Positions 2,134-4,593 of a stretch of 11,135 nt of DNA are shown here, piece after piece. This DNA comes from Propionibacteriaceae bacterium (GTDB taxonomy: Bacteria; Actinomycetota; Actinomycetes; Propionibacteriales; Propionibacteriaceae): the NCBI GenBank assembly GCA_031255975.1, contig JAIRRM010000146.1, forward strand, positions 1 to 11,135, read 5' to 3'. The notes below the pieces were generated by a model that made no database searches, had not been told where the DNA came from, and saw only the letters and a program-made list of their open reading frames with translations. Position 1 is the first letter of the stretch, and every line of letters begins with the position of its first letter. The position numbers and the translations under genes were made by a program.

Positions 2134-2352
2134 TCAGCGGTTACGCGCCGCTCGGCGTTGTGGGTTGATTATCTTTGCGATCATCTCCGGGGTGAGGCCG
2201 ATCATCTTGGCCAGGTGCGAATAGGTGAAGTCTCCCGATGTGTACAACATACGTACCAGGTGATCGCGCCTATCAAGCGCTTGGGAGGCTAAACGCTTGT
2301 GCTCCTGGGCCGCTAGTTGGGCCTCCCTCGCGGCCGCCAGTCTTATGTCCAT
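2134..2352 (-). CDS. Small helix-turn-helix protein, 72 aa
   Basis: A short basic protein that I cannot assign to a named family. Residues 1-30 are rich in Ala, Arg, Gln and Glu and should form one long helix, possibly a coiled coil. Residues about 40-63 (FTYSHLAKMIGLTPEMIAKIINP) look like a helix-turn-helix: SHLAKMIG as the first helix, LTP as the turn and EMIAKII as the recognition helix. The tail is basic (RRAARNR). The ATG at 2352 has GAGG only 4 nt upstream. It lies 60 nt downstream of rsr on the same strand, separated by a strong hairpin, so it may be a weakly co-transcribed third member of the Ro locus. A DNA-binding regulatory role is inferred from the HTH pattern only. Confidence 0.65.
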   Translation of the reverse strand: MDIRLAAAREAQLAAQEHKRLASQALDRRDHLVRMLYTSGDFTYSHLAKMIGLTPEMIAKIINPQRRAARNR

Positions 2353-2412: not shown

Positions 2413-4050
2413 TTACTGACCACGGATGAAGTCTCCAATCAGATTGGGGACGGCACTGTCGAAGCCGGCCACGTCAAGCATCCCGGCGTCCGACGGATCG
2501 GCGATGGAGAACGACGTGGCCGTCGTCGCCACCACAACCAACTTTGCAGGGATGCCCAGTTGGTCACGGTATTGCCTGAGCGCCTGATACGGGTGGATGT
2601 CACCCGCCCAGGTTTCGTTGTCGGTGTACACGATGAACGTGTCCACCGGCACCTTCGCCTTAGCTGCCCAGAGCATCGGCAGTGCGCAGTCGGTACCTCC
2701 GAACGGGAGGTTGTCTGTCTTACGGAGCACATCATCCAGCCGCATTCGCGGCGAGATGTCCAGCTTCGAAATGGCGCACCCTCCGAAGAGGGATGCGCTC
2801 TTCTTGGCGTAAAGCGGTTGTGTCGCCGTAAAGGCCACTACCTCGTAGTCCGGTTCCGTCGCTGCGGTGACTAACGCCATAGCCGCCGTCGCCTCCCGGG
2901 CGCTGAGCGGCATTCCGCTGATCGGTGCCGTCATGGAGCCCGACACATCGAGTGCGAGCAACAGACGCTTTCCGGTCGGCTCGACACCCCCATACGCCGC
3001 ATAGAAGGCGGCATCAAGGGCGTCGAGCACCTGGCGTTCAGGTGTCCACTTGCTGTCGCCGCGTACCCCCTTACCGTTCGCGTAGGTACGCAAGGCGACC
3101 AGCACGCTCATGGGATGCACCCTGGCCCCGTGCAGCCTGACCGGATCGGCCAGTTGCCGTGCGATGAGTTTGCCGGTGTCTCCTCCGGTCAGCCCGAGCC
3201 TGGTGAGGCGCGGCAACTGCCGTAGCAGTGCCGTCTGGGGCAGCCCGGCATGGATCAGCGCCTCCCACACTCCCGTCATGGTGAGCGCGACATCTGGCAG
3301 CGTCTCCCAGGGCATCCCAGGGTTCTCGCTAATCAGCCTGACGAAGTCGGCCTCAGCGCCAGCCGCTCCCAGTGCCTGCGCCTGCGTGTACGCGCCGACG
3401 ATGCTGGGCAGCCCCGCCGTGTCGCCGGTGCCCTTGGAGACGGCCCAGGCGAAAAGATCGCCATGGGCGGCGTCCATCCCGGTGGGGTGGGCAAGACGCA
3501 ACAGATCCCGGTGCGTCCAACCTTCACGTTGCCGGTACTTGACGAGCTGATAGGCCAGCTTGTCGGCGGACTGGTTCAGGTACCAGTCGGCGACCGCACG
3601 CCTGAGCCCGCGCCCCCAGGAGCGGAACTGCCGTACGTATCCGATGAAGATGAACAGGTGTGTGCCGGTACGGGCCACCTGCGGCAGCTTCTCCAGCGCG
3701 TAGGTCCTGCCTGCATCATCGGCAAACGAGGCGGCGATGGCGAGGGCGAACAGCGCCGGATTGGCCCTGGGTGCCCTGCCCGCGACGGAAACCTCGACGA
3801 TGATGTCAACCAACAGCCGGGGATTCGTCTCTGCCAACTGCATCACGATTTCGGCGTTCTCCGCAGCAAGCTCACGAGGCTGGGCGTAGTACGTGCCTCC
3901 TTCGACCCCCAGGGTCAGGAAACGCCGCAGTCGCGCCTCGTCGTCGATCGCGAAGGTGTATCCACCGGCTGAGTTTTCAACCTGATCCTTCCGCGCTCGC
4001 AGTCGTTGGCTGGTTGCCCGCGTGCTAATTATCTTCAATATGTCTGTCAC
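2413..4050 (-). CDS. rsr: Ro60 orthologue Rsr: TROVE domain plus vWA domain RNA-binding protein
   Basis: The 545-residue product has the two-domain layout of Ro60/Rsr. Residues 1 to about 340 are the HEAT-repeat TROVE ring, recognisable from NSAGGYTF, RRFLTLG and GGTYYA near the N-terminus and repeats such as RTGTHLFIFIGYVRQF and MPWETLP. Residues about 360-545 are a von Willebrand A fold with an intact MIDAS: D368-V-S-G-S372, T453 (GGTDCALP) and D477 (VYTDNETW). In known bacteria Rsr binds Y RNA on the outside of the ring and single-stranded RNA ends in the cavity, and helps exonucleases such as PNPase in rRNA maturation and stress-time RNA decay. I chose GTG 4050 because AAAGGAGG lies 8 nt upstream and the product then starts MTDILKII. 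Two Y RNA modules lie directly upstream on the same strand, an arrangement that strongly supports the Ro assignment. Confidence 0.93.
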   Translation of the reverse strand: MTDILKIISTRATSQRLRARKDQVENSAGGYTFAIDDEARLRRFLTLGVEGGTYYAQPRELAAENAEIVMQLAETNPRLLVDIIVEVSVAGRAPRANPALFALAIAASFADDAGRTYALEKLPQVARTGTHLFIFIGYVRQFRSWGRGLRRAVADWYLNQSADKLAYQLVKYRQREGWTHRDLLRLAHPTGMDAAHGDLFAWAVSKGTGDTAGLPSIVGAYTQAQALGAAGAEADFVRLISENPGMPWETLPDVALTMTGVWEALIHAGLPQTALLRQLPRLTRLGLTGGDTGKLIARQLADPVRLHGARVHPMSVLVALRTYANGKGVRGDSKWTPERQVLDALDAAFYAAYGGVEPTGKRLLLALDVSGSMTAPISGMPLSAREATAAMALVTAATEPDYEVVAFTATQPLYAKKSASLFGGCAISKLDISPRMRLDDVLRKTDNLPFGGTDCALPMLWAAKAKVPVDTFIVYTDNETWAGDIHPYQALRQYRDQLGIPAKLVVVATTATSFSIADPSDAGMLDVAGFDSAVPNLIGDFIRGQ

Positions 4051-4058
4051 CACTCCCA

Positions 4059-4066
4059 CCTCCTTT
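4059..4066 (-). promoter_or_regulatory. Strong ribosome binding site that fixes the rsr start
   Basis: AAAGGAGG on the minus strand, 8 nt from GTG 4050 and 5 nt from the adjacent in-frame GTG 4053. It rules against the longer upstream ATG at 4107, which would put the Shine-Dalgarno sequence inside the coding region. Confidence 0.8.
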
Positions 4067-4157
4067 CGCTTACCGAGGAACAGTGACGATGAGGACATGG
4101 GGGGCAACGCGGACGTGTGGTATCGACCGGAAGCCCGTTTTAGATGCTCAGCTTTCT

Positions 4158-4240
4158 CGGGCCAAGCCGGGCCGCGGGATTCGAACCCGTAACGCGGTAT
4201 GCCGCACTCGCCAATGAGATAACCGACCGATTGCGGCCCG
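4158..4240 (-). ncRNA. Y RNA-like module B with tRNA-like fold in normal order
   Basis: The 5' strand (4240-4218) matches that of module A at 18 of 23 positions without gaps, including CGGGCCG and GGUUAUC. The parts follow tRNA order: UA at 4221-4220; a D-arm CUC-AUUGGC-GAG (4218-4207) with the GG pair; a reduced hairpin GCGG-CAUA-CCGC (4205-4194) in place of the anticodon arm; and a T-arm with canonical loop UUCGAAU (4189-4175). Two exclusive closing stems are possible: CGGGCCGC (4240-4233) with GCGGCCCG (4175-4168), or a long Y-type stem with GGCUUGGCCCG (4168-4158), in which C4233 is bulged. It is not a functional tRNA because the anticodon loop is missing and the acceptor-to-D distance is too long. 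The end lies about 107 nt before rsr with no terminator, so it may be processed from the rsr leader. Confidence 0.75.
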
Positions 4241-4273
4241 CGTCGCCTCCCACATCCTCATATTCAGTTAGGT

Positions 4274-4411
4274 GTTGCGGACATGGGTTCACCCGCTGGA
4301 ACTCCCTCCTGCTCTGCCGTTTGAGCTACCGGCGTCGCCGCCGCCCAGGACTCGAACCTGGATGTGGAGGCCCAGATCGTACTTGATAACCAACTGGCTT
4401 CGGCCCGCAAC
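4274..4411 (-). ncRNA. yrlA: Y RNA (YrlA-type) module A with circularly permuted tRNA-like domain
   Basis: The ends pair perfectly: GUUGCGG (4411-4405) with CCGCAAC (4280-4274). The next bases, GGCCGAAG then GUUGGUUAUC, resemble the conserved Ro-binding strand of Y RNAs; C4402 can be bulged as in animal Y RNAs. Inside lies a tRNA-like fold in permuted order: stem CCUCC (4370-4366) with GGAGG (4309-4305); a T-arm with a 5-bp stem and canonical loop UUCGAGU (4361-4345); an acceptor-like hairpin CGGCG-GCGA-CGCCG (4343-4330); UA at 4328-4327; and a D-arm GCUC-AAACGGCA-GAGC (4326-4311) containing the GG pair. It lies just upstream of rsr and begins where the promoter at 4420-4448 would start transcription. 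That bacterial Y RNAs mimic tRNA is known; this fold is my reading of complementarity. Confidence 0.8.
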
Positions 4412-4419
4412 GAAGAGTA

Positions 4420-4448
4420 ACTGTAACGTGTTACAGAGGGGGATGCAA
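4420..4448 (-). promoter_or_regulatory. Sigma70-type promoter of the Y RNA/rsr unit
   Basis: On the minus strand, TTGCAT (4448-4443) and TACAGT (4425-4420) are separated by exactly 17 nt. The first purine at a usable distance is G4411, which is also the first base of the perfect terminal stem of Y module A. This agreement between promoter geometry and RNA 5' end is the main support. Confidence 0.6.
4421..4436. promoter_or_regulatory. Perfect palindrome over the Y RNA promoter -10 (likely operator)
   Basis: CTGTAACGTGTTACAG consists of 7-bp arms with a 2-bp spacer. It covers five of the six -10 bases and reaches into the spacer of the Y RNA promoter, so a bound dimeric regulator would block transcription. 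The regulator is unknown. It is unlike the HAIR site of clpB 105 bp away. Confidence 0.55.
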
Positions 4449-4541: not shown

Positions 4542-4566
4542 AAGTTGAGCGTGATAGACTCAACTT
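4542..4566. promoter_or_regulatory. HAIR element (HspR operator) upstream of clpB
   Basis: AAGTTGAG-N9-CTCAACTT is a perfect 8-bp inverted repeat. Its core TTGAG-N9-CTCAA (4545-4563) matches the HspR-associated inverted repeat consensus CTTGAGT-N7-ACTCAAG except for three outer positions. HspR is known to repress clpB, dnaK and related heat-shock genes in Actinobacteria. It ends 28 nt before clpB, the expected place. hspR itself is not in the window. Confidence 0.85.
4552..4560 (+). promoter_or_regulatory. Possible extended -10 of clpB inside the HAIR
   Basis: TGATAGACT fits TGnTAnnnT and lies within the HAIR, so HspR binding would occlude it. No convincing -35 lies 17 nt upstream. A start site near 4567 would give a leader of about 27 nt. 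Confidence 0.3.
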
Positions 4567-4593
4567 ATCTGATGGCTAGGAAGGTTACTGAAA

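What the first reader, a model, noticed from the sequence alone, without database searches (positions are those of the whole stretch)
4158..4411. Two tandem Y RNA modules directly upstream of the Ro60 orthologue
A 254-nt non-coding stretch holds two non-identical modules on the rsr strand. Their 5' strands match at 18 of 23 positions without gaps (4407-4385 and 4240-4218). Module A carries GGCCGAAG and GGUUAUC; compared from memory with human Y1 it agrees at about 17 of 22 positions of the Ro-binding strand. Both carry D- and T-arm-like hairpins. Bacterial Y RNAs linked to rsr are established knowledge; this tandem non-identical pair may bind two Rsr rings or two partners.
Basis: partly seen in the sequence, partly recalled or inferred. 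Interest (0 to 1): 0.85.

Follow-up and report, generated by a model that had tools for sequence, protein, structure and literature searches.

The report
Tandem Y RNAs with their own switch
Two small structured RNAs of the Y RNA class sit in tandem in front of a bacterial version of the human Ro60 protein, a common arrangement among its relatives, and the cluster also seems to carry its own dedicated regulator: a palindromic DNA site at the start and a small, unstudied DNA-binding-like protein at the end.

Summary
The finding is real; its borders need correcting. A covariance model built from 40 actinobacterial relatives, without the window, finds two significant hits in the window and its whole genome: Y RNA A 4411-4274(-) (77.4 bits) and B 4244-4106(-) (52.0 bits). 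B ends at 4106, not 4158. A has T- and D-arm-like hairpins, B only the T-arm. The stems covary strongly. The tandem is ordinary: 47 of 50 compared loci carry 2-4 Y RNAs before rsr.

New: a palindrome, TGTA-N6-TACA, lies just before Y RNA A, and a 72-residue helix-turn-helix-like ORF follows rsr. Among 49 evaluable actinobacterial loci 26 have both, 21 neither, 2 the protein with a one-mismatch palindrome, none the palindrome alone. In 20 of 21 rsr-bearing genomes that I picked from 30, the searched pattern occurs once, at rsr. The protein lies next to rsr in 21 of 30 rsr-bearing family genomes; 1 of 168 others has a weak hit. I propose an autoregulated operon: operator, Y RNAs, rsr, regulator. 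Expression and binding are untested, and kinship explains part of the co-occurrence.

The parts
4422..4435 (-). palindrome TGTA-N6-TACA (with one more symmetric pair: 4421-4436), proposed operator
   Evidence: The patterns TGTAACNNGTTACA and YTGTAAYRYGTTAYAR each occur once in the own genome, here. The same kind of site lies 4-51 nt before a Y RNA in 26 of 28 compared loci with the HTH gene, with one mismatch in the other 2.
4420..4448 (-). promoter-like hexamers TTGCAT (4448-4443), 17 nt, TACAGT (4425-4420), overlapping the palindrome; predicted start near 4413
   Evidence: Read by eye; the consensus scan found no promoter. Several relatives have TTGACA at the corresponding place. Inference.
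4274..4411 (-). Y RNA A, T-arm + D-arm (tRNA-like) type; lower stem 4411-4403 with 4282-4274, T-arm 4361-4345, D-arm 4326-4311
   Evidence: R1 77.4 bits, E 3.4e-16; one of two significant hits in the whole genome; Rfam YrlA 27.5 bits on 4362-4311, below its gathering score of 69.
4106..4244 (-). Y RNA B, T-arm-only type; lower stem 4244-4236 with 4114-4106, T-arm 4189-4175
   Evidence: R1 52.0 bits, E 1.7e-10; nematode sbRNA ceN72-3 28.6 bits on 4245-4106, below its gathering score of 38.
4084..4266 (-). long stem made by outward extension of the lower stem of B; possible processing site between the Y RNAs and the rsr mRNA
   Evidence: Inverted repeat 29 nt, 79%; fold z-score -5.85, 0 of 200 shuffles as stable. 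The processing role is inference.
2413..4053 (-). rsr, Ro60 orthologue; likely start GTG 4053 behind AAAGGAGGT (4066-4058)
   Evidence: TROVE 148.9 bits and vWA_Ro60 218.5 bits (on the longer ORF 2413-4107); 371.5 bits to D. radiodurans Rsr 2nvo and 364.8 to vertebrate Ro 1yvp, with the His187 column conserved (position counted by hand).
2134..2352 (-). 72-residue HTH-like protein directly downstream of rsr, proposed regulator
   Evidence: Family of 32 aligned members including this one, each found just after rsr; AlphaFold2 pLDDT 88.9, helix 3-38 then helices 44-51, 55-62, 65-70.

Best explanation
The stretch 4448-2134 (- strand) is one Ro60/Y RNA operon: operator/promoter, Y RNA A (tRNA-like), Y RNA B (T-arm only), rsr, small HTH gene. 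SHOWN by sequence comparison: the two Y RNAs, their Ro-binding stems, the rsr identity, the palindrome, and the tight co-occurrence of palindrome and HTH gene. INFERRED: one transcript starts near 4413 and is cut at the lower stems to release the Y RNAs; each Y RNA binds the Rsr ring through the shared stem-bulge-stem, while the different inner parts (tRNA mimic in A, other hairpins in B) bring different partners, PNPase being one candidate; the HTH protein binds the palindrome as a dimer across the promoter and represses its own operon until an unknown stress lifts it.
For: Y RNAs: a model built without the window gives 77.4 and 52.0 bits, next best 13.6, and no other significant hit in the 1.6 Mb genome. 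On the 40-sequence MAFFT alignment 95.8% of cells pair, 21 of 32 pairs have changes on both sides, 0 of 500 shuffles reach any of the five measures, and slid versions pair 36-50%. Five further rsr loci drawn from the class, not used for the model and no copies of earlier loci, all carry hits just upstream of rsr. Rsr; a PNPase gene is present. Regulator: 49 evaluable loci: 26 both, 0 palindrome only, 2 HTH only (palindrome with one mismatch), 21 neither; Fisher p 6.5e-12, not corrected for kinship. The 5 later loci have neither. Of the 30 rsr-bearing family genomes, 20 have the palindrome at rsr (each pattern hit being the only one in its genome), 7 lack it and also lack the HTH gene, and 3 are cut upstream of rsr. 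HTH family: 21 of 22 hits among 198 genomes are next to rsr. Half-sites vary symmetrically: the pair flanking TGTA/TACA is complementary in 24 of 29 sites, as G-C in 19 and C-G in 5. Nocardia L026 has both while the 10 other Nocardia loci have neither.
Against: No expression or binding data. Single-sequence folding of A and B does not return the upper Ro stem and is only mildly more stable than shuffles (z -1.64 and -1.93). On the rsr tree the exact palindrome changes 7 times and the HTH gene 6; only 2-4 independent pairs lie on strongly supported branches, of which 2 go the same way and none the opposite way, too few for a significant sign test. Foldseek PDB matches of the HTH model are weak (best E 0.6) and Pfam gives the window protein only sub-threshold HTH hits. 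L082 has the HTH gene with a broken rsr and neither palindrome nor Y RNA found. The consensus scan found no promoter and no terminator. The 21 genomes were my choice; the second pattern was not searched in the other 9 rsr-bearing genomes.
Confidence: 0.74

Rival explanations
1. The palindrome is the site of a regulator encoded elsewhere; the HTH gene is only co-inherited with that version of the operon.
For: Co-occurrence is partly phylogenetic: 6-7 changes on the tree, 2 concordant well-supported independent pairs. The two innermost palindrome pairs are mostly not symmetric (10 and 7 of 29).
Against: Each pattern hit is the only one in its genome and lies at rsr, which fits a local regulator; the HTH family is nearly confined to rsr loci; both traits are gained or lost together in L026 and in L011/L023.
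Confidence: 0.17
2. The small protein binds RNA, for example a Y RNA or rRNA, as an extra part of the Ro particle.
For: Pfam MRP-L20 (mitochondrial ribosomal mL58) matches member L003 above its cut-off (33.7 versus 30.4 bits) and is the precomputed domain of 92 of the 120 listed homologues; mL58 is also the best PDB sequence match of the profile, E 0.054.
Against: It does not explain the co-occurring DNA palindrome; 22 of 50 loci with Y RNAs show no HTH gene (one of these, L098, is cut 56 nt after rsr); the nearest folds, though weak, are mostly DNA-binding regulators.
Confidence: 0.09
3. Only A is a working Y RNA; B is a decaying copy.
For: B scores lower, lacks a D-arm, and in L084 and L085 the later Y RNAs have no T-arm.
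Against: B keeps a complete lower stem, bulge, upper stem and UUAUC strand; T-only and hairpin-only Y RNAs recur across the compared loci.
Confidence: 0.08
4. The modules are decayed tRNA genes.
For: T-arm and D-arm hairpins; a weak tRNA-Sec match, 20.9 bits with cut-off 47.
Against: ARAGORN finds no tRNA in the window; the T-arm precedes the D-arm; conserved stems unlike a tRNA enclose both.
Confidence: 0.01

Closest known systems
Bacterial Y RNAs (D. radiodurans Y RNA; Salmonella YrlA/YrlB; M. smegmatis Yrl)
   Same: Small RNAs next to rsr with a stem for Ro60/Rsr; YrlA has a tRNA-like domain; more than one Y RNA per locus (Salmonella rsr-yrlBA-rtcBA; PMC7790460 and PMC4726728, passages).
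   Different: Here they lie upstream of rsr behind a palindromic site. Neither the window nor any of 19 relatives' loci reaches Rfam's YrlA score. No rtcA or rtcB is among the nine window proteins scanned.
Nematode sbRNA family ceN72-3_ceN74-2 (Rfam RF01656)
   Same: Ro-like stem, bulge and GGUUAUC strand align to B over its full length, 28.6 bits.
   Different: Below the curated score of 38; no claim of common descent.
RtcR control of the Salmonella rsr-yrlBA-rtcBA operon
   Same: A dedicated regulator beside a Ro60/Y RNA operon (PMC7790460, passages).
   Different: RtcR is a sigma-54 activator with a CARF domain, divergently encoded. Here it is a 72-residue HTH-like protein co-directional after rsr, with a palindrome at a sigma-70-like promoter.
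RYPER (Rsr, Y RNA, PNPase; PMC4726728 and PMC8058203, passages)
   Same: Rsr, Y RNA and a PNPase gene are all in the genome.
   Different: No evidence of a complex.

Membership tests
Bacterial Y RNA (functional class) | Encoded beside an Ro60 orthologue | tested here: met
   The likely rsr start 4053 lies 52 nt after B.
Bacterial Y RNA (functional class) | Conserved Ro-binding stem-bulge-stem with covariation in relatives | tested here: met
Bacterial Y RNA (functional class) | At least one Y RNA per species with a tRNA-like domain (recalled from Chen 2014, which is not held) | tested here: met
   A has T- and D-arms.
Bacterial Y RNA (functional class) | Expressed and bound by Rsr | not testable with these tools
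   Needs RNA-seq and pull-down.
Rfam YrlA RF02553 | Gathering score of 69 bits | tested here: not met
   27.5 bits for A, no match for B.
tRNA gene | Recognised by ARAGORN or the Rfam tRNA model | tested here: not met
Ro60/Rsr protein | TROVE and Ro60-type vWA domains | tested here: met
   Above Pfam cut-offs.
Ro60/Rsr protein | Conserved Y-RNA-contact histidine (H187 in vertebrate Ro60, PMC4030889 passage) | tested here: met
   Alignment to 1yvp: LLRLSH with LLRLAH (position counted by hand).
NCBIfam Rsr NF041674 | Cut-off of 900 bits | tested here: not met
   508.8 bits.
Known HTH regulator families (Pfam) | Curated cut-off of an HTH family | tested here: not met
   Window protein: Crp, MarR and HTH_3 hits of 13-15 bits, cut-offs 23-27.
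RYPER complex | Y RNA tethers Rsr to PNPase | not testable with these tools
   PNPase gene present; tethering unknown.

The most novel reading that the evidence does not exclude
A large actinobacterial group controls its Ro60/Y RNA particle with a dedicated, single-target switch: an HTH protein of roughly 70-120 residues encoded after rsr binds one palindromic site at the head of an array of Y RNAs with interchangeable inner modules on a shared Ro-binding stem. It would be a previously undescribed family of autoregulator for Ro60 RNPs.
Probability: 0.7. Interest if true: 0.65.

Novelty: new variant of a known kind. Interest (0 to 1): 0.58.

Why it matters
Of the papers I saw, only those on the RtcR system of Salmonella explain what turns a bacterial Ro60/Y RNA operon on. 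A co-encoded regulator with a single genomic target gives a handle: deleting one small gene should switch the particle on or off, making its function directly testable in harmless actinobacteria. The 130 Y RNAs predicted here also show an Rfam gap, and that one Ro protein is commonly supplied with several Y RNAs of different inner design.

Tried and rejected
Rejected: tRNA or tRNA relic (and covariation); Rfam YrlA membership (below cut-off); the tandem pair as something unusual (47 of 50 loci have 2-4 Y RNAs). A first home-made detector was noisy (107 hits upstream of rsr, 33 on the opposite strand, 23 in shuffled sequence) and was replaced by the covariance model. A1 used 40 T+D-type Y RNAs from 31 loci; some T+D hits (for example in L013, L015, L028) were left out and no window sequence was used. 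Gene-neighbour clustering: of the 14 largest clusters printed I read all but the small HTH ORF as rsr or its shadow frames, or as narrow ones; this was by coordinates only. Weak HTH-profile hits in G154 and in ten class genomes (21-34 bits) were set aside; G154's, a distant HTH-like protein in a genome without rsr, was looked at, the ten were not. Off-locus pattern matches in G038, G089, G176 and G181 are in line with the backward-pattern control (5 of 198 genomes); G181's rsr contig begins inside rsr. G114's match is a Y RNA locus cut by the contig edge.

Rows dropped before the 49-locus count: non-actinobacterial loci, and L035 and L044 (actinobacterial by title), all of which lacked both traits; duplicates of the same record; loci cut upstream or downstream or broken (L007, L077, L082, L089, L098, L111, L112).

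Papers: the main ones (Chen 2014; Sim & Wolin 2018; Boccitto & Wolin 2019; Sim 2020) are not held, so I cannot say the HTH gene is unpublished; the searches listed no paper whose title or shown abstract deals with it. Seen: passages of PMC7790460, PMC4726728, PMC4030889, PMC8058203, PMC9569102, PMC7824862; the rest as search listings.

Full report
WHAT WAS CLAIMED. Two tandem, non-identical Y RNA modules at 4411-4158 on the minus strand, directly upstream of an Ro60 orthologue.

THE GENE. The minus-strand ORF 2413-4107 has TROVE (148.9 bits) and Ro60 vWA (218.5 bits) domains. Matches to many actinobacterial relatives begin at residues 13-22 of that ORF, so GTG 4053 (residue 19) behind AAAGGAGGT is the likely start (inference). 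The protein matches D. radiodurans Rsr (2nvo, 371.5 bits) and two further Ro60 sequences (9nen 367.6 and 1yvp 364.8 bits) along nearly the whole length, and the column of the Y-RNA-contact His187 is kept (His187 role from a passage of PMC4030889).

THE RNAS. Rfam at gathering thresholds finds nothing. With permissive settings YrlA covers 4362-4311 (27.5 bits, cut-off 69) and the nematode sbRNA family ceN72-3 covers 4245-4106 (28.6 bits, cut-off 38). In the actinobacterial loci T-loop motifs cluster on the rsr strand just upstream of rsr. From these I aligned 40 T+D-type RNAs of 31 loci, none from the window. RNAalifold returned a lower stem, an upper stem, a T-arm, an acceptor-like stem and a D-arm. 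On that alignment 95.8% of cells pair (shuffles 76.8%), 21 of 32 pairs have changes on both sides, no shuffle of 500 reaches any measure, and slid structures pair 36-50% of cells.

INDEPENDENT TEST. The model from that alignment, R1, finds in the window A 4411-4274 (77.4 bits, E 3.4e-16) and B 4244-4106 (52.0 bits, E 1.7e-10); the third hit has 13.6 bits. In the rest of the genome the best is 19.9 bits, E 0.35. Five rsr loci drawn later from other families of the class, none a copy of an earlier locus, all have R1 hits just upstream of rsr. Against this, single-sequence folding of A and B does not return the upper stem and gives modest z-scores (-1.64, -1.93). The structure rests on comparison, not on thermodynamics.

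TANDEM ARRAYS ARE ORDINARY. In 50 actinobacterial loci (R1 hits) there are 130 Y RNAs: 3 loci with one, 26 with two, 9 with three, 12 with four. By simple motif rules the first is T+D type in 38 of 47 multi-copy loci, and the last is T-only or hairpin-only in 36 of 47. The closest relatives have two (L085) and three (L084). Salmonella's operon also has two (rsr-yrlBA-rtcBA; PMC7790460, passages). The lower stem usually runs on outward (mean 5.4 further pairs, control 1.8; B of the window 20); for B the extended element folds far better than shuffles (z -5.85), which could be a cutting site separating Y RNA from mRNA (inference).

THE PALINDROME. TGTAACACGTTACA ends ten nucleotides before A and overlaps a -10-like hexamer; several relatives show TTGACA at the -35 position. 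I searched 21 of the 30 rsr-bearing genomes of the family (my choice, mainly those with a visible palindrome). TGTGTA-N6-TACACA occurs once in each of 15, YTGTAAYRYGTTAYAR once in each of 5 others, always at the rsr locus by coordinates; G155 has neither. Of the nine not picked, six (G070, G071, G072, G082, G098, G109) show no palindrome before their Y RNAs (loci L110, L038, L104, L018, L108, L107) and three are cut upstream (G074, G181, G194). In all 198 genomes of the family the first pattern hits 20: the 15, a contig-edge Y RNA locus in G114, and four unrelated places, against 5 genomes for the backward control. The flanking pair varies symmetrically (G-C 19, C-G 5, other 5 of 29), as expected for a dimer site; the two innermost pairs are mostly not symmetric (10 and 7 of 29).

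THE SMALL PROTEIN. A 72-residue ORF (2134-2352) follows rsr. A profile of six members finds the family just after rsr in 33 of 99 sequences searched, the window included, two of them one record. By first start codon most members overlap the rsr stop; the window's starts 60 nt after it. In 198 family genomes it is found in 22: 21 next to rsr, and one weak, distant hit; of the 30 rsr-bearing genomes 9 show none, one of these (G039) cut after rsr. In 394 class genomes only the window's own copy scores above 34 bits, although 6 of these have rsr. AlphaFold2 gives a long helix and a helix-turn-helix (pLDDT 88.9). PDB fold matches are weak but mostly DNA-binding regulators. Of 120 listed homologues 92 carry the label of mitochondrial ribosomal protein L20, and where a source names them it is mostly as hypothetical.

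LINK. Of 49 evaluable actinobacterial loci 26 have both, none the palindrome alone, 2 the protein with a one-mismatch palindrome, 21 neither (Fisher 6.5e-12). A positional test gives the same picture, with one chance-like one-mismatch site in L081 and one palindrome in L098, whose contig ends 56 nt after rsr. The five later loci have neither. On the rsr tree the exact palindrome changes 7 times and the HTH gene 6; on strongly supported branches 2 independent pairs go the same way, none the opposite way, so kinship is not fully excluded. L082 keeps the HTH gene beside a broken rsr, and no palindrome and no Y RNA were found there.

READING. Most likely an autoregulated Ro60/Y RNA operon: operator, Y RNA array, rsr, HTH regulator. 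Repression rather than activation is inferred from the overlap with the promoter. The inducing signal is unknown. Presence is patchy: rsr in 30 of 198 family genomes and 6 of 394 class genomes; G196 of the same genus has clpB but no rsr or Y RNA beside it.

NOVELTY. The Y RNAs are new members of a known class. The regulator-palindrome pair did not turn up in the searches named under Tried and rejected; the key reviews are not held, so this stays open.

Noticed in passing
L032, L033, L036, L040, L043, L045, L047, L053, L057, L079 (and L035): In records titled Deltaproteobacteria, Myxococcales, Kofleriaceae, Bradyrhizobium, Eremiobacterota and Glaciihabitans, rsr sits inside dense same-strand tRNA arrays: 8-19 ARAGORN tRNAs per locus, on both sides of rsr.
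   Followed up: partly
window 4542-4567: Inverted repeat TTGAGC-N7-ACTCAA upstream of clpB, resembling the HspR-type HAIR element (recalled); the same letters stand before clpB in G196 (L160).
   Followed up: partly
Rfam RF02553: None of 19 actinobacterial rsr loci reaches the YrlA gathering score although each has R1 hits: an annotation gap a new family could fill.
   Followed up: yes
small HTH proteins, for example L003:4586-4798: Pfam MRP-L20 (PF12824) matches the L003 protein above its cut-off (33.7 versus 30.4 bits), and 92 of 120 listed homologues carry that label, probably a shared HTH rather than a ribosomal protein.
   Followed up: partly
L082:2560-4386: Bifidobacteriaceae MAG with rsr broken into three frames, an open HTH gene, and no R1 hit or palindrome found: probably a decaying locus.
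   Followed up: partly
window 4084-4266: The stem of B runs on for about 20 pairs beyond the 9-pair lower stem into the rsr leader; 10 of 130 Y RNAs have 14 or more further pairs.
   Followed up: partly
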